A stretch of DNA of 64,000 nucleotides from a virus. The notes beneath the pieces were generated by a model. The model saw only the letters and a list, made by a program, of their open reading frames with translations. It was not told the origin of the DNA and searched no databases. Every line of letters starts with the position of its first letter. Position 1 is the first letter of the stretch. This document shows positions 11,502 to 54,115 of this stretch, in pieces. The translations under genes and the position numbers were made by a program. The stretch spans positions 79,096 to 143,095 of IMG/VR virus record IMGVR_UViG_3300027963_000041; one strand, given 5' to 3'.

Positions 11502-11720
11502 ATGAGTGAACACATTCAAGCGGCAATAGATGCCGCATTAAACGCGAAACCTACAGATTTTAAAGACAGCATTTACAATGCAATTCAGCAAAAAGTAGAT
11601 GACGTAATGTTCTTGAAAAAAATGCAGGTTGCTAACCAGATTTTCAATAACCAAGAAGAATCATCAACAAACGATTCGGAATTAAGTCCAGAAGAGGAAA
11701 ATATAGATGAAGACCTTTAA
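11502..11720 (+). CDS. Prohead core protein, gp67-like
   Basis: 72 residues with a helical N-terminal half and an acidic C-terminal tail rich in Glu, Asp, Asn and Ser. Size, composition and position right after the portal/fibre block and before the protease match T4 gp67, a small internal core protein of the prohead needed for head shape. Sequence identity to T4 is not obvious, so the call is mainly positional. Ribosome site GAGGAG; the next gene overlaps its end by 14 bases. Confidence 0.6.
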   Translation: MSEHIQAAIDAALNAKPTDFKDSIYNAIQQKVDDVMFLKKMQVANQIFNNQEESSTNDSELSPEEENIDEDL

Positions 11721-12087
11721 AAGTTTTCTTTTTAGTCTAGACGAAGTTAAGACCGTTGGTCTTAAAAATAAACTCGCTAAGACTACTTACATGGCACAAA
11801 TGAAGGACCCTGGAGACCTTGAGGATGTAGGTCCTGAAGAGGTTGGTCCAGCGAGCGTTAAATCTGGTAGCGGTAAAAGACCTGCGGACAGACTTGACAA
11901 CAAGCAAGCATTTGGCGAAGAAGCATACGCAACTATCAAAGCAAAAGTAAAAGAAGAAAAAGATCAAGACGCTTTGATTGCATTGTACGATTCACTTACA
12001 GAAGAAAATCAAAAAATCTTTTTAGAAAATTTTCAAAAAGATTCAGATAAAATTCTTCAGTTTGCTCTCTCATTAGTCGAGGAGTAA
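11707..12087 (+). CDS. Prohead core protein, gp68-like
   Basis: 126 residues. It begins MKTFKSFLFSLDEV, which resembles the N-terminal capsid-targeting sequence of T4 core and internal proteins (MKTYQEFI-like) and contains a possible gp21 cleavage triplet L-D-E (residues 11-13). The rest is Lys/Glu-rich and helical. Position between the gp67-like gene and protease gene 21 fits gp68, which builds the scaffold core and is degraded on maturation. Confidence 0.6.
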   Translation: MKTFKSFLFSLDEVKTVGLKNKLAKTTYMAQMKDPGDLEDVGPEEVGPASVKSGSGKRPADRLDNKQAFGEEAYATIKAKVKEEKDQDALIALYDSLTEENQKIFLENFQKDSDKILQFALSLVEE

Positions 12088-39785: not shown

Positions 39786-40097
39786 ATGGGTAATATTAGA
39801 TTATTTCGTTTGATTAGTGGTGAAGAAATTGTTGGTGAAGAAATTGGCACCAGCCAAGGTATGCCAAAACGCGCAATTAAAAATCCTTGCCTTATTGGAC
39901 TTATGCCGACACCAACTGGTGGTGCAACATTGAACATGCAACCACTTCTACTCTTTTCAGACACAAAAGAAATTAACATTAAAGAAGATCACATTCTGTA
40001 TGATACGGGTGTTGACATTAAGATTCTAAACAAGTATAATGAGATATTTGGATCAGGGATCGTAATTGCTCAACAAACCCCAACTTATACACGATGA
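39786..40097 (+). CDS. Second Sm-like small protein
   Basis: 103 residues from ATG 39786 (TTGGAGA site). Starts NIRLFRLISGEEIVGEE, the same Sm-like pattern as the gene at 18079-18477, followed by beta-rich segments. It overlaps the DNA polymerase start by 4 bases and contains its promoter. Possible RNA binder. Confidence 0.5.
   Translation: MGNIRLFRLISGEEIVGEEIGTSQGMPKRAIKNPCLIGLMPTPTGGATLNMQPLLLFSDTKEINIKEDHILYDTGVDIKILNKYNEIFGSGIVIAQQTPTYTR
40012..40040 (+). promoter_or_regulatory. Sigma70-type promoter for gene 43
   Basis: Full-consensus TTGACA (40012-40017), 17-bp spacer, TATAAT (40035-40040) inside the Sm-like gene, 54 bases before the polymerase start. Confidence 0.75.
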
Positions 40098-41536
40098 AAT
40101 TCTATACACACTTTACACGATATGGTAACTATATTCTAGAACGCGGCTATGAAAATGGCAAGCGTTACGCTAATAAAGTAGAATATAATCCAACATTGTT
40201 TGTTCCGTCAAAAACGGAAACTGAATTTAGTACATTGGAAGGCTATCATGTGGCGCCCGTTGAAATGGGAACGATGCGTGATGCAAATGACTTTATTAAA
40301 AAGTATGAAGAAGTAGAAAACTTTCCAATCTACGGCTCTACAAACTATCCATATGTGTATATCAATGAGCAGTATCCAGATGAAGTATACTACGACAAAG
40401 ATTTAATTCGTGTTGCAAACATTGATATTGAGGTTGGTTCTGAGAACGGGTTTCCTGAGCCAGACAAAGCGAGTGAACCAATCACCGCAATCACAATAGA
40501 GATTGATGGTACGTTTTTCGTCTTTGGTTGTGGCGACTATGAAACACATCAAGATAATGTATCATATCTCAAATGCAAAGATGAGAATCATTTGATTGAA
40601 CAATTTCTAAACTTATGGGAATTAAAATCACCAGACGTAGTGACTGGTTGGAATATTCAATTCTTTGATATTCCATATATCTACAATCGCATTAATCGCT
40701 TGATGGGTGAGAAGACAGCAAAGCGTTTGTCCCCATACAAATCGATTGGCGAACGCACAACAACAATCCACAACAGACAGCAAACTGCGTTTGATCTTGT
40801 GGGTATTGCAATTCTAGATTATCTAGAACTGTACAAGAAATTTACTTATTCGCAACAAGCATCTTATCGCCTTGATCATATCGCATACATCGAACTTGGT
40901 GATAAAAAATTAGACTATTCTGAGCATGAAACTTTACACCAACTCTATAAAAACAACTATCAAAAATTTATTGAATACAACATCAAAGATGTGGAACTTG
41001 TCGACCGCCTCGATGAAAAAATGAAATTCATTGACATGGTGCTGGCGCTGGCATACGATGCAAAGGTCAATATGACTGATGTATTCACGCAAGTACGCAT
41101 GTGGGACACTCTAACACATAATGCCTTGTGGAAGAAAGGTGTTGTTGTACCTCAAAAGAAATTCTCATCAAAGAATGAGAAGTATGAGGGTGCCTATGTG
41201 AAAGAGCCGGCACCAGGCAAATATGATTGGGTTGTATCGTTTGACTTGAACAGTCTTTATCCACACTTGATTATGCAATACAATATTTCGCCTGAGACTA
41301 TCATCAACGGCAAACACGCCAGCGTAAGTATTGAAGATTTACTGCACAGTAAATATAACAATGATAGCGAATATGTTATGGCTGCCAATGGCCATTATTT
41401 TAGAAAAGATGTGCAAGGCTTTCTGCCTGAGATGATGCAACGCATGTATAATGATCGTGTTCTATATAAAAATAAGATGATTGAATCACAGAAAGAACTT
41501 GAGAAAGTCAATGCACAGTTAAAGGAATTAGCATGA
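40094..41536 (+). CDS. 43A: DNA polymerase gp43, N-terminal half (43A)
   Basis: 480 residues. Family B polymerase up to motif A: proofreading exonuclease motifs NIDIEV (Exo I), GWNIQFFDIPYI (Exo II) and YNIKDVELVDRL (Exo III), then SFDLNSLYPHLIM (motif A, first catalytic Asp). It stops after a Lys/Glu-rich helix (SQKELEKVNAQLKEL), before motif B. The remaining polymerase is encoded from 42038. Stop codon overlaps the start of the dioxygenase gene (ATGA). Confidence 0.95.
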   Translation: MKFYTHFTRYGNYILERGYENGKRYANKVEYNPTLFVPSKTETEFSTLEGYHVAPVEMGTMRDANDFIKKYEEVENFPIYGSTNYPYVYINEQYPDEVYYDKDLIRVANIDIEVGSENGFPEPDKASEPITAITIEIDGTFFVFGCGDYETHQDNVSYLKCKDENHLIEQFLNLWELKSPDVVTGWNIQFFDIPYIYNRINRLMGEKTAKRLSPYKSIGERTTTIHNRQQTAFDLVGIAILDYLELYKKFTYSQQASYRLDHIAYIELGDKKLDYSEHETLHQLYKNNYQKFIEYNIKDVELVDRLDEKMKFIDMVLALAYDAKVNMTDVFTQVRMWDTLTHNALWKKGVVVPQKKFSSKNEKYEGAYVKEPAPGKYDWVVSFDLNSLYPHLIMQYNISPETIINGKHASVSIEDLLHSKYNNDSEYVMAANGHYFRKDVQGFLPEMMQRMYNDRVLYKNKMIESQKELEKVNAQLKELA

Positions 41537-42045
41537 TACAAACTTATACAGAAATTTTACCAAAAGATTTTTGCGAACATTTGATGCGTAAATTTGATGA
41601 ACAGGAGACAAAAGATTTGTCTCATGGTATGTTTGAACAAATTGAAATTGATTGGGAAGATGAAGTAAAGGCATTGATCGATACCACAAAACATGTGGCC
41701 GAACACTATAAAACTTTATATGATTCGCATAATATGATGCCACGGCGCAGACGTATTGAAGGGTTTCGTATCAAGCGGTATGAACCTAACAAACATTCTT
41801 TCCCATTACATTCCGATGCGTCAAGTTTAGAATCATGCACAAGGTATCTTTCCTTTTTGTTTTACTTAAACGATAGCGAAGCAGGAACAAGATTCCATGG
41901 ACCTTTAGGCATGGAGCCCTTGACAATTGAAGCAAAACAAGGTAACCTATTAGTGTTTCCTCCTATGTGGATGTATCCACACGAAGGCATTATGCCTACT
42001 GAAAAACCAAAGTATATTATGAGTACCTATTTCCATTATGTCTGA
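41533..42045 (+). CDS. 2OG-Fe(II) dioxygenase inserted between polymerase halves
   Basis: 170 residues. Prolyl-4-hydroxylase-like fold: H93-S-D95, YLSFLFYLN strand, GNLLVFPP, distal H150 in YPHEG and K160 as 2OG anchor. Not a homing endonuclease of any family I know. ATGA overlap on the left and an 8-base overlap on the right couple its translation to both polymerase halves. Substrate unknown. Confidence 0.85.
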   Translation: MIQTYTEILPKDFCEHLMRKFDEQETKDLSHGMFEQIEIDWEDEVKALIDTTKHVAEHYKTLYDSHNMMPRRRRIEGFRIKRYEPNKHSFPLHSDASSLESCTRYLSFLFYLNDSEAGTRFHGPLGMEPLTIEAKQGNLLVFPPMWMYPHEGIMPTEKPKYIMSTYFHYV

Positions 42046-43129
42046 TAAAACAGAACTACTGAAAAGAAAACGTCAACTAGAAAACGAAATATCACGTTAC
42101 AAGAATTTGCAACTTGCAAAGAAGGTGCAACTAAACTCAGCGTATGGTGCGCTAGGTAACGAATATTTTAGATTCTTTGATCTGCGTCAGGCAGAAGCAA
42201 TTACCTTTTCTGGTCAACTTTCAATTCGTTGGATTGCTGACAAACTCAATATGTACATGAACAAACTATTGAAGACTGAAGGAATTGATTATGTCATTGC
42301 GTCAGATACGGACTCTGTATATCTCCATCTTGGTCCGTTGGTGGATATGGTCTACGGATCGAAGAGTATCGAAGAAGAAAAGATTGTTGATTTTATCGAC
42401 AAAGCCTGCCAAGAAAAGATTGAACCGTTTATTGATAAGGCGTATGAAGAACTAGCGAACTACATGAATGCGTTTGATCAAAAGATGTTCATGAAGCGCG
42501 AAGTGATTGCGAACAAAGGTATTTGGACTGCAAAGAAGCGGTACATTCTGAACGTGTGGGACTCAGAAGGGGTTCGTTATAATGAACCAAAACTGAAAAT
42601 GTCTGGCATTGAAGCAGTCAAGTCTTCTACACCAGGATCATGCAGAACAAAAATTAAAGAAGCACTCAAGGTAGTCATGAAAGGCACCGAGGCAGAGTTT
42701 CATGAATTCAATCGCAAATTCAAAGAAGAGTTTTTTACTCTGCCATTTGATGATGTAGCATTCCCGCGCGGTGTTTCTGAACTGACTAAATATCAGAGTA
42801 AGACTGATCTTTATCAGAAAGGCACACCAATTCACGTTCGCGGCGCATTGATATATAATAAACTTATTGAAACAAAAAAGTTGTCTCGCAGATATGAGAC
42901 AATCAAAGATGGGGACAAGGTCAAGTTTTGTTACATGAAACTACCAAACCCTACGCAAGAGAACGTGCTATCTGTTCTCAATGTTTTACCAAAAGAGTTT
43001 GCTTTGGAGAAATATATCGACTATGAAACACAATTTGAGAAGGCGTACTTAGAGCCGCTCAAAATTATTGTGAACACTTTTGGATGGAGTGCCGAACCAG
43101 TTTCATCACTAAAAGGATTTTTTACATGA
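42038..43129 (+). CDS. 43B: DNA polymerase gp43, C-terminal half (43B)
   Basis: 363 residues. Begins with a charged helix (LLKRKRQLENEI) and then motif B KVQLNSAYGALGN and motif C ASDTDSVYL, followed by KKRYIL and the thumb. Catalysis needs association with 43A, probably through the complementary helices at the break. It ends with the GWSAEP..SLKGFF-type C-terminus expected to bind gp45. Confidence 0.95.
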   Translation: MSDKTELLKRKRQLENEISRYKNLQLAKKVQLNSAYGALGNEYFRFFDLRQAEAITFSGQLSIRWIADKLNMYMNKLLKTEGIDYVIASDTDSVYLHLGPLVDMVYGSKSIEEEKIVDFIDKACQEKIEPFIDKAYEELANYMNAFDQKMFMKREVIANKGIWTAKKRYILNVWDSEGVRYNEPKLKMSGIEAVKSSTPGSCRTKIKEALKVVMKGTEAEFHEFNRKFKEEFFTLPFDDVAFPRGVSELTKYQSKTDLYQKGTPIHVRGALIYNKLIETKKLSRRYETIKDGDKVKFCYMKLPNPTQENVLSVLNVLPKEFALEKYIDYETQFEKAYLEPLKIIVNTFGWSAEPVSSLKGFFT

Positions 43130-49061: not shown

Positions 49062-50303
49062 ATGGGCTTCTTTATGCTGAAATTCAAAGAGTATTTAAAC
49101 GAACAAAAAAACACGCACATGGAACATGCCGAAGACGATGTTCTTAATGGCGGTGTTAAGGGTGCCCGCGACAGTATCAATGCACTCCGTGCTGTACGCG
49201 ATATGTTAGCCGGCCACTCAAAACAAAGAGTAAGCGTCACAGTTAAATGGGATGGCGCGCCAGCAATTTTCGCAGGCAAAGACCCTAGCGATGGTAAATT
49301 CTTTGTAGCGAAGAAAGGTGTATTCAATAAGAATCCCAAAGTCTACAAAACCAACGCAGAAATTGATGATGATACATCAGGTGACCTTGCGGCTAAACTC
49401 AGAGCATGTCTTGCTGAGTTGCCAGCACTTGGCATCGATGGCGTCATTCAAGGTGACTTGCTTTTTACTAAATCCGATATAAAGAACGTCACGATTGATG
49501 GTGAAGATTATGTTACGTTTCATCCAAACACTCTAGTCTATGCAGTTCCAGCGCAAAGTGAACTTGCTAAAAGTATCAAATCCGCTGAAATTGGCATTGT
49601 GTGGCATACGTTTTATGAAGGTTCTTCATTTGAAACAATGAAAGCAGTCTTTGGTAAAAATATTTTATCCACACTCAAGAAAACGAGCCGAGTTTGGTCT
49701 ACAGATGTAGACTACAAAGATGTTTCTGGCAAAGCAACATTGACCAAAGAAGAAACAAACAAGATTACAGACATACTTTCTGACGCAGGAAAGATTTTCT
49801 ATAAGATAGACGCTAAGGTTCTGAATCACATCAGAGAGACAGACGAACTGCGCGAGAAAATCAAAACATTCAACAATACAAAAGTCAGAAACCAACTCAA
49901 AATTACAAATGTAAAGAGTCATGTGGCTGAATTGATTCAGTTTATGACTGCATATTTCGACAAAGAAATTGAAACTCGCAAATCTGCAAAGTCAAAGGCA
50001 GAATGGGAAACAAAAAAGATGGATGGTTTGAAGTTCTTTAACGCAAAGAACAAAGCGCAACTTGAAAATATCTTTACGTTAATTAATTTGCTTGCTGAAG
50101 CGAAGTTGATTCTAGTAAATAAACTAGATGAGGTGAAGAGTCTTCAAACTTTCTTGTTGACCAAGAATGGTTACGAAGTGACTGGTGTTGAGGGGTACGT
50201 TGCGATTGATCACCTGACAGGAAATGCTGTAAAACTAGTTGATAGAATGCGTTTCAGTTACGCAAACTTCTCTCCAGAGGTGATTAAAGGCTGGCAGAGA
50301 TAA
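49062..50303 (+). CDS. Covalent nucleotidyltransferase (RNA/DNA-ligase-like) protein, candidate head cargo
   Basis: 413 residues from ATG 49062; ATG 49074 is equally likely and would start MLKFKEYLNEQ. Ligase-superfamily motifs: K62-W-D-G (motif I, AMP-accepting Lys), FFVAKKGVF (motif III-like), E377-G-Y-V (motif IV) and KLVDR (391-395, motif V). A helical insert of about 150 residues separates motif III from IV. The N-terminus resembles T4 capsid-targeting sequences, and L-N-E14 before Q15 fits a gp21 site. Predicted: a ligase or capping-type enzyme packaged in the head. Known databases list such phage proteins as a domain of unknown function. Confidence 0.65.
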   Translation: MGFFMLKFKEYLNEQKNTHMEHAEDDVLNGGVKGARDSINALRAVRDMLAGHSKQRVSVTVKWDGAPAIFAGKDPSDGKFFVAKKGVFNKNPKVYKTNAEIDDDTSGDLAAKLRACLAELPALGIDGVIQGDLLFTKSDIKNVTIDGEDYVTFHPNTLVYAVPAQSELAKSIKSAEIGIVWHTFYEGSSFETMKAVFGKNILSTLKKTSRVWSTDVDYKDVSGKATLTKEETNKITDILSDAGKIFYKIDAKVLNHIRETDELREKIKTFNNTKVRNQLKITNVKSHVAELIQFMTAYFDKEIETRKSAKSKAEWETKKMDGLKFFNAKNKAQLENIFTLINLLAEAKLILVNKLDEVKSLQTFLLTKNGYEVTGVEGYVAIDHLTGNAVKLVDRMRFSYANFSPEVIKGWQR

Positions 50304-50359: not shown

Positions 50360-51415
50360 ATGGCAAAACTGAATGAAGGTGATGTGATCGAAGGTATCTT
50401 TACCATTGCACTTAGCCTCTATCTTGCATACGGATCAGTAGACAAGAAAAAACTAAATGAGATTCGTACCAAAGTTGATACGAAGATGTTTGGTACAGGA
50501 AGATTCAAGCATAAAGTTGTTGAGGGGCATATGCGTCAAAGAGCAAAAAATCCTCCAGACTTTTTCAATGTAAACTTTGAGATGAGACTGAAGCCTGAGT
50601 CAGTACAAGGCGCGTTTGATAAAGAATATGAAGTACTTTATAAATCATCAAAAGACGTTGGTAATATTGATAAGAAAATTGATCAGTTAATCAAGGCAAT
50701 TGAAGGTGCAAGTTTCAGCCGCAAAGCAGGCGCCGCAGTTGATCATTTCTTAAATAACAGTACTGGTGAAGTAGTCACATTCACAGTCATTGCAGATGGT
50801 ATCGCCGGCGAATCTTCTGGTGGTGAAGTTAAAGGTGACGTTACGCTAGAAGTGTACGCTACAAAAAAAGGCGGCAACCAAAGAATCATTAGCGGCAGCC
50901 TACCATTCTCACTTAAATCAGAATCAGTCACGGTTGCAAACCTATCGCCATATCGCGGTATGCTTGATATTGCAAAAGCAATTGGTATTCAATGGGATGC
51001 TGAAGAAAAGTATGTTCGATTAGCAAAGCCATTTATTGGACCAGTCGAACAAGCCGCTAAGTTTGCTTTGATTGAAGAGATGTATAGTGATTTAAAAAGT
51101 AGAATGATACAAGAATCTGTTAAGTCTACGTTCACGAATAGAGCATTAGACTTTTTAGCAAAAAGCATTTTTGGTTCAGATTTGGCTGACGTAGTTGACG
51201 TACAATCAGGCACAGTCAAAGAGATTACAGTTGACTACTACAATGAACTACGCAAAAACGTCACATTAATTGCAAAATCAAACGGCAATAATTTAGTCTT
51301 TTCAGACAAAAAAACTGATGTTGCAATTTTTCAGATACGCACTAAATTGCGTCCTCCACCGGCAAACGAAGCAAAATTTTACCTAGAAGTTGGTAAAGGC
51401 ATATATTCAAAGTAA
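50360..51415 (+). CDS. Late structural or cargo protein, unknown
   Basis: 351 residues. N-terminal ALSLYLAYG hydrophobic segment, a beta-rich middle (residues about 130-190) and a C-terminal strand pair ending QIRTKLRPP. Same neighbourhood and T4-like marine phage distribution as the ligase-like gene. No motif recognised. Gap upstream (50304-50359) has only a weak TATAATAA. Confidence 0.6.
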   Translation: MAKLNEGDVIEGIFTIALSLYLAYGSVDKKKLNEIRTKVDTKMFGTGRFKHKVVEGHMRQRAKNPPDFFNVNFEMRLKPESVQGAFDKEYEVLYKSSKDVGNIDKKIDQLIKAIEGASFSRKAGAAVDHFLNNSTGEVVTFTVIADGIAGESSGGEVKGDVTLEVYATKKGGNQRIISGSLPFSLKSESVTVANLSPYRGMLDIAKAIGIQWDAEEKYVRLAKPFIGPVEQAAKFALIEEMYSDLKSRMIQESVKSTFTNRALDFLAKSIFGSDLADVVDVQSGTVKEITVDYYNELRKNVTLIAKSNGNNLVFSDKKTDVAIFQIRTKLRPPPANEAKFYLEVGKGIYSK

Positions 51416-51487: not shown

Positions 51488-54115
51488 ATGAAAAAAACAG
51501 TTGTATTCTCATTCGGTCGAATGAACCCCATGACAAATGGGCATGAAAAACTTGCAGAAAAACTCAAGTCTGAAGCATCGAAGCGCAATGCCGATGCAAA
51601 ACTGTTTCTATCCCACAGTCAAAATTCCAAAAAAGATCCACTAGACTACGCAACAAAATTAAGATTTGCGCGTAAAGCATTTGGCACGATTGTGCAAAAC
51701 TCTAGTGCAAAAGTTATTTTTCAGGTTCTTGAAGAACTAAACGGCAAGTACGATAACATTGTAATGGTTGTCGGAAGTGACCGAGTAAAAGAATTTGAAA
51801 CAATCATTAATAAGTATAATGGTAAAGGCGATTACGAATTCAAATCAGTTGAAGTAATTTCTGCTGGCGAACGCGATCCGGATGCAGAAGGAGTCACCGG
51901 TATGTCAGGATCAAAGATGAGAGGCTTCGCCGCATCGAATGATTTTGATAACTTTAAAAAAGGTGTTCCATCAAAATTATCTGATGCAGATGCAAAGGCG
52001 CTTTTTGCCGCAGTTAAAAAGGGGATAAACTTGAAAGAGCAATTCGACAATAACACAGAGATAGACGAAGAGATGGACGAAGCACTTACAATGCAAGGAC
52101 GTAGAAAACGTGCCATGCAAGTAAGACGTTTAAAATCAAAACTATTACGCGCAAGAGAACGTGCGAGTCGCCGCTTTGCAAATCAGCCAACACTTGCTAA
52201 GAGAGCAAGACGCCAAGCAGTCACATTCTTGAAACGTAGAATTGGTGGCGGCCAAGCATATGCAAACCTATCACCTTCACAGAAAATGTCAATTGACAAA
52301 AAGATTGAAAAGATGAAAGGCGTAGTCGGTAAGATTGGTTCTCGCTTGTTACCTCAAGTACGCAGAGCAGAGGTTCAAAGAAAACAAAATCAATCAAGAG
52401 CAAACGAATCATTCATTGCATTGTTTGAGAAGCCAGAACTGCCACAAGATAAACACGTTGGCGGTAAAGAAGGCACACAGCCAAGCAAGTACTACAAAGG
52501 CTTAGACAAAGGCACAAAAGAAAGACGCGATGCACATTTCAAGAGCATGGGTCCAAAATCTGATTCTGATAAGTCTGCATACGCAGACGCGCCAGGCGAC
52601 AAAGAAGCAAGAGAAAAAGGTATGCCACAGTCAAAGCATACTAAAAAATTCAAGCAAATGTTCGGAGAAGAAATTGGTAAGAAAGAAATTTCTCGCTTGG
52701 ATCAATTGGTTCGCTTAGGACTTGCAGACAAGACTTTACTTTCAACGATTAAGAAAGCAATGTCTAAGATTGACACTGGTGATTCACTATCCACATCTGA
52801 AAGACAAGCAACACAAAATCTATTATCTACCTTGCTTGACATGGTAACAAGTCAAGATCAATTGTTCAATCTTGCAAAAATGTCTTTGAGAAAAGAACAG
52901 TTTGATGAACTGAATGAAGCCGCATATGTTGGCAACATTGGTGTTATGGAACTTGCTAAGTTTTATCAGAAAGCAGAGCCACGCCAAGTTGAGATGTTCA
53001 AAAAACTATTGGCGATGAAAGATTACAAACGTGCATGGGCATTGGTTCAAGGCGCGACTGGCACAAAACTTATTGGTAAAGAATTTAGCGAAGAAGTACA
53101 AGCCATTGTTGAAAAAGGTGATTATGACGATTACGAAGAATTAGATGGATTGGAGATGGCGCAGATTGAAGTAGCCAATCTTATTCAAGACGCAGAAATG
53201 CTTGCAGACATTCTATCCGAAATGGATGAAGAGCCAGAAGCATGGGTGCTTTCAAAGATTACAAAAGCAGTTGATTACATTGAATCAGTAACAGATTACC
53301 TAGAATTCGAAGACGATTACGACTACGAAGAAGATGACGATGTTTATGACGATGAAGACGCAGAGTATGGCATGAGCGATACAGACATGTACGAAGCATT
53401 GTCTGATATGTCAAAAGAAGAGATGGGCGAAGACTTATACGAAGTTTATAGCGCACTACATGAAGAAATAGAAGGCTTGAAAAAGAAAGCAGAAAAGTCT
53501 GGCATTGCATACGACATTCTCAAGAAAGTTTACGACCGCGGCATGGCGGCATGGCAAGGTGGTCATCGTCCAGGAACAACACCACAGCAATGGGCTTTTG
53601 CTAGAGTGAATTCATTCATCACAAAAGGCTCTGGTACATGGGGTGGCGCAGATAAAGATTTAGCATCAAAAGCAGGTAGTAAGAACGAAGAGTTTTCTAA
53701 ATTCGCTGAAGCATTAGAGTGGGGCACAGATGAATTGCGTAAGAAGTATGCAAAAGATACGCCAGGACAATCTGAAGAAACATGTTGCGGTGATTGTGAA
53801 AAGGATTCTATTGGGGAAGATGTTGATTGGGAAAAAATTATAAACGAAGCAGAATATCAAGGTAAGTCTGTTAAGTTGAATGATCCATTCAGAACACCTG
53901 ATGGTCCGAAGAAGTTCGGCGTGTACACTATGGGTCCAAACGGCAACGTAGTTATTGTTCGTTTTGGTGATCCTAATATGGAAATCAAACGTGACGATCC
54001 TGAACGTAGAGCAAATTTCAGAGCAAGACATGGATGTGATAATCCTGGACCAAAGTGGAAAGCAAACTACTGGTCGTGTCATCAATGGCGTGCTGGCTCC
54101 AAAGTAGACAGTTAA
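51488..54115 (+). CDS. Modular late protein: nucleotidyltransferase domain + basic/acidic polyprotein
   Basis: 875 residues. Residues 1-170: NMN-adenylyltransferase/cytidylyltransferase fold with FSFGRMNPMTNGH (TNGH as the HxGH box) and GMSGSKMRGF (SGSxxR). Residues 202-300: extremely Arg/Lys-rich, DNA-binding-like. Residues 546-650: extremely Asp/Glu-rich. Residues 690-730: WQGGHRPGTTPQQWAFARVNS module. Residues 790-875: VRFGDPNMEIKRDDPERR / FRARHGC module with paired Cys, seen at the ends of many phage proteins. (L/I)-x-E triplets at domain borders (after E184, E314, E477, E787) fit gp21 processing. Probably an internal head protein delivering an enzyme. Confidence 0.75.
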   Translation: MKKTVVFSFGRMNPMTNGHEKLAEKLKSEASKRNADAKLFLSHSQNSKKDPLDYATKLRFARKAFGTIVQNSSAKVIFQVLEELNGKYDNIVMVVGSDRVKEFETIINKYNGKGDYEFKSVEVISAGERDPDAEGVTGMSGSKMRGFAASNDFDNFKKGVPSKLSDADAKALFAAVKKGINLKEQFDNNTEIDEEMDEALTMQGRRKRAMQVRRLKSKLLRARERASRRFANQPTLAKRARRQAVTFLKRRIGGGQAYANLSPSQKMSIDKKIEKMKGVVGKIGSRLLPQVRRAEVQRKQNQSRANESFIALFEKPELPQDKHVGGKEGTQPSKYYKGLDKGTKERRDAHFKSMGPKSDSDKSAYADAPGDKEAREKGMPQSKHTKKFKQMFGEEIGKKEISRLDQLVRLGLADKTLLSTIKKAMSKIDTGDSLSTSERQATQNLLSTLLDMVTSQDQLFNLAKMSLRKEQFDELNEAAYVGNIGVMELAKFYQKAEPRQVEMFKKLLAMKDYKRAWALVQGATGTKLIGKEFSEEVQAIVEKGDYDDYEELDGLEMAQIEVANLIQDAEMLADILSEMDEEPEAWVLSKITKAVDYIESVTDYLEFEDDYDYEEDDDVYDDEDAEYGMSDTDMYEALSDMSKEEMGEDLYEVYSALHEEIEGLKKKAEKSGIAYDILKKVYDRGMAAWQGGHRPGTTPQQWAFARVNSFITKGSGTWGGADKDLASKAGSKNEEFSKFAEALEWGTDELRKKYAKDTPGQSEETCCGDCEKDSIGEDVDWEKIINEAEYQGKSVKLNDPFRTPDGPKKFGVYTMGPNGNVVIVRFGDPNMEIKRDDPERRANFRARHGCDNPGPKWKANYWSCHQWRAGSKVDS

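What the first reader, a model, noticed from the sequence alone, without database searches (positions are those of the whole stretch)
49062..50303. Ligase-superfamily enzyme of an unassigned family
Motif I KWDG, motif IV EGYV and motif V KLV are all present and correctly ordered, but a long helical insert separates them, unlike T4 DNA ligase or Rnl1/Rnl2. This suggests a distinct covalent nucleotidyltransferase branch, maybe RNA repair or capping.
Basis: partly seen in the sequence, partly recalled or inferred. Interest (0 to 1): 0.65.

Follow-up and report, generated by a model that had tools for sequence, protein, structure and literature searches.

The report
Divergent ligase-like enzyme of marine phages
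A widespread but uncharacterised protein of marine T4-like phages (Pfam DUF6267) looks like a minimal, strongly diverged cousin of DNA and RNA ligases, and in this phage it carries a signal suggesting it is packed into the virus head and injected with the DNA.

Summary
The ORF at 49062-50303 (probable start 49074) is Pfam DUF6267, function unknown, present in at least 466 phage records. In 105 non-redundant members the putative nucleotidyl lysine (KxDG, K62 of the ORF), a QxD motif and an HTxY motif are invariant; EG(Y/F)V and the lysine of K(L/I)V are 98-99% conserved. AlphaFold gives a confident model with the expected strand/motif order and a helical insert between motifs IIIa and IV. Natural short relatives lack most of that insert; for one of them the best 47 PDB fold matches are all DNA/RNA ligases or capping enzymes, although no single match is significant. 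It belongs to none of the named branches: there is no OB or other C-terminal domain, motif V has one lysine, and no profile similarity to T4 Rnl2 was found.

New here: the first ten residues (MLKFKEYLNE) match the T4 capsid-targeting sequence (MKTYQEFIAE) at all four functional positions. DUF6267 is usually followed by, or fused to, an NMN-adenylyltransferase-like gene whose product has been found in cyanophage virions. A nuclease-like gene is often adjacent.

Best reading: a new branch of covalent nucleotidyltransferases, probably a nucleic-acid end-sealing enzyme, pre-packaged in this lineage. Neither activity nor packaging has been shown for DUF6267 itself.

The parts
49074..50303 (+). DUF6267 ligase-like protein, 409 aa (413 aa if the ATG at 49062 is used)
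   Evidence: Pfam PF19782 E=5e-108; phrog_455 E=3e-99; start 49074 shared by most relatives
49074..49103 (+). capsid-targeting-like N-terminus MLKFKEYLNE, predicted prohead-protease cut after the Glu
   Evidence: same register as T4 ipII/ipIII MKTYQEFIAE|A; positions 4, 7, 8 and 10 are the ones tested in T4 (PMC9026906); the only window ORF with the full strict F/Y pattern at its start
49110..49136 (+). family-specific motif NTHMEHAED (N-x-H-x-E-H-x-E-D); many cyanophage relatives start at this point
   Evidence: H15 and H18 100%, E20 and D21 98%; N-termini
49245..49262 (+). motif I KWDGAP, putative nucleotidyl lysine K58 (K62 in the 413-aa ORF)
   Evidence: K, D, G 105/105; end of strand 53-57 in the model
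49314..49316 (+). invariant Lys81, candidate equivalent of the basic residue of motif Ia
   Evidence: 100%; the equivalence to T4 Rnl2 R55 is inferred
49449..49457 (+). QGD, candidate motif III (Asp instead of the usual Glu)
   Evidence: Q and D 105/105; inside strand 124-132
49605..49616 (+). HTFY, candidate motif IIIa
   Evidence: H, T, Y 105/105; strand 173-182
49722..50126 (+). helical insert (residues 217-351)
   Evidence: DSSP on the AlphaFold model; largely missing in short relatives
50190..50201 (+). motif IV EGYV
   Evidence: E and G 99%
50232..50246 (+). motif V KLVDR (one lysine, not KxK)
   Evidence: K 98%, R 96%; 14 residues after motif IV Glu
50360..51415 (+). partner candidate: 351-aa protein with a possible PD-(D/E)xK-like pattern (GDVTLEVY...FSLK)
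   Evidence: motif reading only; no Pfam hit above cut-off
51488..54115 (+). partner: HIGH-type nucleotidyltransferase (CTP_transf_like / NMNAT-like) with long C-terminal extension (DUF5824)
   Evidence: phrog_3041 cytidyltransferase E=2e-87, second half of fusion profile phrog_455 E=3e-22; DUF5824

Best explanation
It is a minimal, strongly diverged member of the covalent nucleotidyltransferase (ligase/capping) superfamily. K62 attacks ATP (or NAD+) and becomes adenylated; D60, D128 and E373 handle metal and substrate; K387 contacts the alpha-phosphate. The AMP is then most likely passed to a nucleic-acid 5' end that is sealed. The missing C-terminal domain would be replaced by the HxEH N-terminus, the helical insert, or partner proteins. 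In this phage lineage the protein is made with a T4-type capsid-targeting peptide, packed into the prohead, trimmed after Glu10 by the gp21-type protease, and injected with the genome beside its NMN-adenylyltransferase-like partner, so it could act on the incoming DNA or on damaged RNA before phage genes are expressed. Shown by computation: family, motif invariance, superfamily-like topology, targeting-like N-terminus, conserved partner. Inferred: catalysis, substrate, packaging, injection.
For: Motif residues invariant over 105 non-redundant members. Models with pLDDT 84.9 and 88.8 place motif I at the end of a strand, motif III and IIIa in strands, and IV and V in the last two strands. For the short relative the 47 best PDB matches are all ligases or capping enzymes. 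The record's 143 kb has no PF01068, PF01653 or PF09414 ligase, and 10 of 12 tested DUF6267 phages also lack them, while T4 has two such families and no DUF6267. Targeting peptide: F4, Y7, L8, E10 match T4 IPIII in register. In S-CREM2 a strict form of the pattern occurs in 5 of 13 MS-detected virion proteins and 0 of 89 others examined (p=1.5e-5; pattern tightened after a first look). The partner NTase was found in S-SM1, S-CREM2 and S-SCSM1 virions and has the same N-terminus in all three. The signal sits on one partner or the other: 79 loci with it on the NTase and a short DUF6267, 64 with it on a long DUF6267 only, 8 on both. Fusions occur (L061, L063, L478, L480, S-PM2).
Against: No single fold match reaches E<0.001 (best 0.024, prob 0.66, TM about 0.25), and the full-length model alone finds almost nothing in the PDB. 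No profile match to T4 Rnl2. Motif III has Asp instead of Glu; motif V lacks the second lysine; no OB domain or motif VI. DUF6267 has not itself been reported in a virion in the papers read: the signal-less copies of S-CREM2 (gp87) and S-SCSM1 (gp257) are not listed or marked as virion proteins. 143 separate-gene loci show the strict signal on neither partner. The absence of other ligases follows phage taxonomy and may be coincidence; hosts carry NAD+ ligases.
Confidence: 0.5

Rival explanations
1. Superfamily member that transfers AMP to something other than a nucleic acid (a protein such as RNA polymerase, or a small molecule), working as an injected host-takeover enzyme like T4 Alt works by ADP-ribosylation.
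For: Minimal core without nucleic-acid-binding OB domain; non-canonical motifs III and V; targeting peptide as in injected T4 proteins; partner is a small-molecule-type nucleotidyltransferase.
Against: Fold neighbours are polynucleotide ligases and capping enzymes; nuclease-like neighbour genes and location in the replication cluster suggest a nucleic-acid target.
Confidence: 0.22
2. NAD+-consuming ligase whose NMNAT-like partner regenerates NAD+ from the released NMN and ATP; the conserved NxHxEHxED segment would be the NMN site, analogous to domain Ia of bacterial LigA.
For: Recurrent adjacency or fusion with an NMNAT-like domain; extra invariant N-terminal motif before the core; LigA adenylation domains are among the highest-probability PDB matches of the full-length model, though weak.
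Against: The short-core model prefers ATP-dependent ligases; the NTase's substrate is unknown; no sequence similarity to domain Ia was noticed.
Confidence: 0.1
3. A catalytically dead or purely structural head protein that keeps the ligase fold.
For: Capsid-targeting-like peptide; neighbours of the partner NTase are virion proteins in S-SCSM1.
Against: Full invariance of the would-be catalytic residues in 105 diverse members is not expected of a dead enzyme; signal-less stand-alone copies persist in other phages.
Confidence: 0.1
4. The KxDG/EGYV resemblance is convergent and the protein belongs to another fold.
For: No individually significant fold or profile match.
Against: 47 of 47 best matches from one superfamily; correct order and strand placement of the motifs.
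Confidence: 0.08

Closest known systems
Pfam PF19782 DUF6267 / phrog_455 / cyanophage cluster T4-GC 71
   Same: It is a clear member (E=5e-108).
   Different: The family has no assigned function in these libraries; no paper in the searched collection mentions DUF6267.
T4 RNA ligase 2 (Rnl2) and T4 Rnl1
   Same: Order KxDG/KxHG - basic residue - acidic motif III - EGYV - Lys; motif IV letters EGYV as in Rnl2.
   Different: No profile match to Rnl2; lacks Rnl2's C-terminal domain, the Glu of motif III, and KxK; motif IV to V distance 11-14 instead of 21 in Rnl2.
ATP-dependent DNA ligases (e.g. Thermococcus 3rr5, human Lig1/Lig4)
   Same: Best fold neighbours of the short-core model.
   Different: No OB domain, no motif VI, weak TM-score (about 0.25).
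NAD+-dependent DNA ligase adenylation domain (1b04, 1v9p)
   Same: Weak fold neighbours of the full-length model; an extra N-terminal conserved segment.
   Different: N-terminal segment unlike domain Ia in sequence; no PF01653 match.
T4 internal proteins IPII/IPIII (capsid targeting sequence)
   Same: Ten-residue N-terminus with aromatic 4 and 7, Leu/Ile 8 and Glu 10.
   Different: Mature part is an enzyme-like fold, not a small basic protein; packaging not demonstrated.

Membership tests
Covalent nucleotidyltransferase superfamily | Motif I KxDG with invariant lysine | tested here: met
   105/105
Covalent nucleotidyltransferase superfamily | Motif III acidic residue, normally Glu | tested here: inconclusive
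   invariant QxD, Asp128 in place of Glu
Covalent nucleotidyltransferase superfamily | Motif IV EGxV | tested here: met
   EG 99%
Covalent nucleotidyltransferase superfamily | Motif V KxK | tested here: not met
   only the first Lys is conserved: K-(L/I)-V. This lowers the superfamily claim; I therefore file it as ligase-like and a probable new branch, not as a proven member
Covalent nucleotidyltransferase superfamily | Nucleotidyltransferase fold | tested here: inconclusive
   47/47 best PDB matches from the superfamily but none with E<0.001
Covalent nucleotidyltransferase superfamily | Covalent lysyl-NMP intermediate | not testable with these tools
   needs biochemistry
Rnl2 RNA ligases | Sequence-profile similarity and C-terminal domain | tested here: not met
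   hhalign prob 0.2; chain ends after motif V
Rnl1 RNA ligases (PF09511) | Profile match | tested here: not met
   no Pfam match to the window protein other than DUF6267 and a sub-threshold DUF5930
ATP-dependent DNA ligase / mRNA capping enzyme | C-terminal OB domain with motif VI | tested here: not met
   model shows no domain after motif V
NAD+-dependent DNA ligase | Domain Ia and PF01653 match | tested here: not met
DUF6267 (PF19782) | Profile match above curated cut-off over full length | tested here: met
   362 bits against cut-off 27, profile 1-373/376
T4-type capsid-targeted protein | N-terminal ten-residue targeting sequence | tested here: met
   MLKFKEYLNE against MKTYQEFIAE (roles of positions in PMC9026906)
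T4-type capsid-targeted protein | Presence in mature virion, cleaved after Glu10 | not testable with these tools
   partner NTase reported in virions; DUF6267 itself not reported in the papers read

The most novel reading that the evidence does not exclude
T4-like marine phages pre-load a DNA- or RNA-break-handling kit into the capsid: a nuclease-like protein, a new-branch ligase (DUF6267) and an NMNAT-like enzyme that feeds it, injected with the genome to repair or process nucleic acid before any phage gene is expressed.
Probability: 0.15. Interest if true: 0.85.

Novelty: new variant of a known kind. Interest (0 to 1): 0.55.

Why it matters
DUF6267 occurs across T4-like cyanophages, pelagiphages and methylophages, among the commonest viruses in the sea, and has no assigned function in the libraries searched. 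Placing it near the ligase superfamily gives an immediate one-residue test (K62) and may bear on which ligase serves phages that lack the T4 ones. The targeting signal turns 'NMNAT found in virions', until now open to the explanation of contamination, into a specific, testable packaging model, and the same ten-residue pattern could be used to list candidate injected proteins in other T4-like phages.

Tried and rejected
Sequence search of the PDB with the protein and with its profile: only chance hits. Foldseek with the full-length model: the helical insert blurs the alignment, only weak ligase hits among noise; answered by modelling a natural short relative. hhalign against a 15-member T4 Rnl2 alignment: no match; both alignments are shallow (Neff about 3), so this is a weak negative. 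Looking for a cellular version: the genome-contig hits are almost all metagenome-assembled genomes, plus a Prochlorococcus contig and a 188-kb contig of a cultured Nonlabens; these look like phage DNA but I did not prove that. Looking for distant relatives of the Xanthomonas phage XaC1 copy gave only two. A link to tRNA repair: no tRNA gene in the window. The PF09511 genome search was uninformative because its controls also failed. I considered DUF6267 as the replacement of the missing T4 gene 30 ligase in cyanophages; it fits the distribution but that pattern follows taxonomy, and DLP6 and XaC1 have both.

Full report
WHAT IS THERE. The ORF at 49062-50303 is intact and matches Pfam DUF6267 (E=5e-108) and phrog_455 (E=3e-99), both of unknown function. 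tblastn finds the family in 466 phage records, mostly T4-like cyanophages but also pelagiphage HTVC008M, methylophage Melnitz, Stenotrophomonas phage DLP6 and Phage C48C1. Close relatives from IMG/VR mostly begin at the internal ATG 49074, which I take as the start. The window is 64 kb of a 143-kb virus record.

MOTIFS. In 105 sequences non-redundant at 80%, K58, D60, G61, Q126, D128, H178, T179 and Y181 never vary; E373 and G374 are 99% and K387 98% conserved; H15 and H18 of an N-terminal NxHxEHxED segment are also invariant. Spacing motif I to III is 69-70 residues in the window protein and the P-SSM2 form; motif IV to V is 11-14 (the S-SM1 value for motif III printed there comes from a wrong pattern match and is not used). 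Two departures from the textbook motifs are constant: Asp for Glu in motif III and no second lysine in motif V. Motif definitions are from general knowledge of the superfamily.

STRUCTURE. The window protein models at pLDDT 84.9, pTM 0.77. K58 follows strand 53-57, motif III lies in strand 124-132, HTxY in strand 173-182, motifs IV and V in the final strands; helices from 217 to 351 form the insert and nothing but a helix follows motif V. A natural 293-aa relative with most of the insert missing models at pLDDT 88.8. Foldseek with it returns 47 superfamily members in a row (archaeal and human DNA ligases, Naegleria RNA ligase, T4 Rnl2, trypanosome REL1, LigA adenylation domains, capping enzymes), rank 1 E=0.024, prob 0.66. 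None is significant alone; the run of 47 is the evidence, and many of the 47 are repeat entries of the same enzymes. The low TM-scores say that the branch is deep.

NOT A KNOWN BRANCH. No PDB or NCBIfam sequence match, no hhalign match to Rnl2, no OB domain. The record has no match to PF01068, PF01653 or PF09414; 10 of 12 tested DUF6267 phages also lack these, T4 has PF01068 and PF09414 but not DUF6267. S-SM1 and S-SCSM1 also carry DUF6267 but were not tested for ligases.

PARTNERS. 147 of 186 loci with at least 3.5 kb of downstream sequence encode a HIGH-type nucleotidyltransferase downstream, 59 of them within 50 bases. Fusions occur in L061, L063, L478 and L480, and in S-PM2, where the frame is interrupted in the older record but a 591-aa joined protein is in BFVD. 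Next to DUF6267 there is often a protein with a (P)xD...S-x-K pattern, suggestive of a PD-(D/E)xK nuclease: P-HM2, Syn10, P-RSM4, S-MbCM6, Melnitz, HTVC008M, DLP6, S-SM1 and, less clearly, window 50360-51415. This is a motif reading; no library supports it.

CAPSID TARGETING. T4 IPII and IPIII begin MKTYQEFIAE|A. In T4, positions 4 and 7 govern targeting and 8 and 10 processing (PMC9026906). The window protein has F4, Y7, L8, E10. Close relatives keep these four positions (FKEYLNE, FKDYLIE, FKEFLAE, FTDYLIE, FSSYLIE) while position 9 varies freely. P-HM2-type relatives begin MSKNTHLEH, right where the cut would leave the mature chain. As a check of the motif, among 102 S-CREM2 genes examined, the pattern is near the start of 5 of 13 MS-detected virion proteins (an SAM hydrolase, a Cas9-annotated protein, a small protein, a kinase and the cytidylyltransferase) and, in its strict form, 0 of 89 others. 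The first, looser form gave 5 (including one accidental hit, gp156) against 2 of 89; the strict form was set after seeing those, so p=1.5e-5 is optimistic. In S-SCSM1 it occurs once in the 69 genes scanned, in the NMNAT, which is a virion protein.

WHO CARRIES THE SIGNAL. Among separate-gene loci, 79 have it on the NTase with a short DUF6267, 64 on a long DUF6267 only, 8 on both, 3 on the NTase with a long DUF6267, and 143 on neither by the strict pattern. The last class includes HTVC008M-type proteins with only an LxE remnant and, in 12 loci, a targeting-like start on the upstream neighbour instead. Many of these counts come from related contigs and are not independent events. NTases were detected in virions of S-SM1 (PMC3037559), S-CREM2 (PMC10665884) and S-SCSM1 (PMC9602691, which also cites S-CBWM1). 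All three checked have the signal: MKKFSAFLNE, MKNFSSFLTE, MKSFLQFLKE. In S-SCSM1 the neighbouring nuclease-like gp90 is annotated as a virion protein. DUF6267 of S-CREM2 and S-SCSM1 lies far from the NTase, lacks the signal, and is not listed or marked as a virion protein.

CONCLUSION. I put about 0.75 on superfamily membership with a catalytic lysine, about 0.65 on packaging in this lineage, and about 0.5 on the main statement including a nucleic-acid target. The substrate is open. It is most likely a new branch of a known kind, catalogued as a family but without a function.

Noticed in passing
L249 7704-10313 (-), S-CREM2 gp12: A Cas9-annotated protein found by MS in the S-CREM2 virion has a capsid-targeting-like stretch (RFASFMAE|A) about 17 residues from its start; a phage may package a Cas9-like nuclease.
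   Followed up: no
window 40094-43129: The DNA polymerase gene (gp43-like) appears split into two ORFs (40094-41536 and 42038-43129) with a 170-aa 2OG-Fe(II)-oxygenase-like ORF (41533-42045) between them; S-CREM2 also has a polymerase annotated as two subunits.
   Followed up: no
window 11707-12087: Small protein in the prohead-core position (between portal-like and protease-like genes) begins MKTFKSFLFSLDE, a near-match to the targeting pattern; possibly a gp67/gp68 analogue.
   Followed up: no
window 51488-54115: The NTase partner has a roughly 600-aa C-terminal extension with DUF5824 and internal LxE sites (e.g. NESFIALFE|K) that could be prohead-protease cuts.
   Followed up: no
L248 8013-8726, S-CREM2 gp156: An MS-detected virion protein two genes after the cytidylyltransferase looks like a minimal Pol-beta-type nucleotidyltransferase (GGNANYNYTPYSDIDLH).
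   Followed up: no
L252 4989-6065: Xanthomonas jumbo phage XaC1 has a distant DUF6267 (about 25% identity) with an NTase about 3.5 kb downstream, so the loose pairing extends beyond T4-like marine phages.
   Followed up: partly
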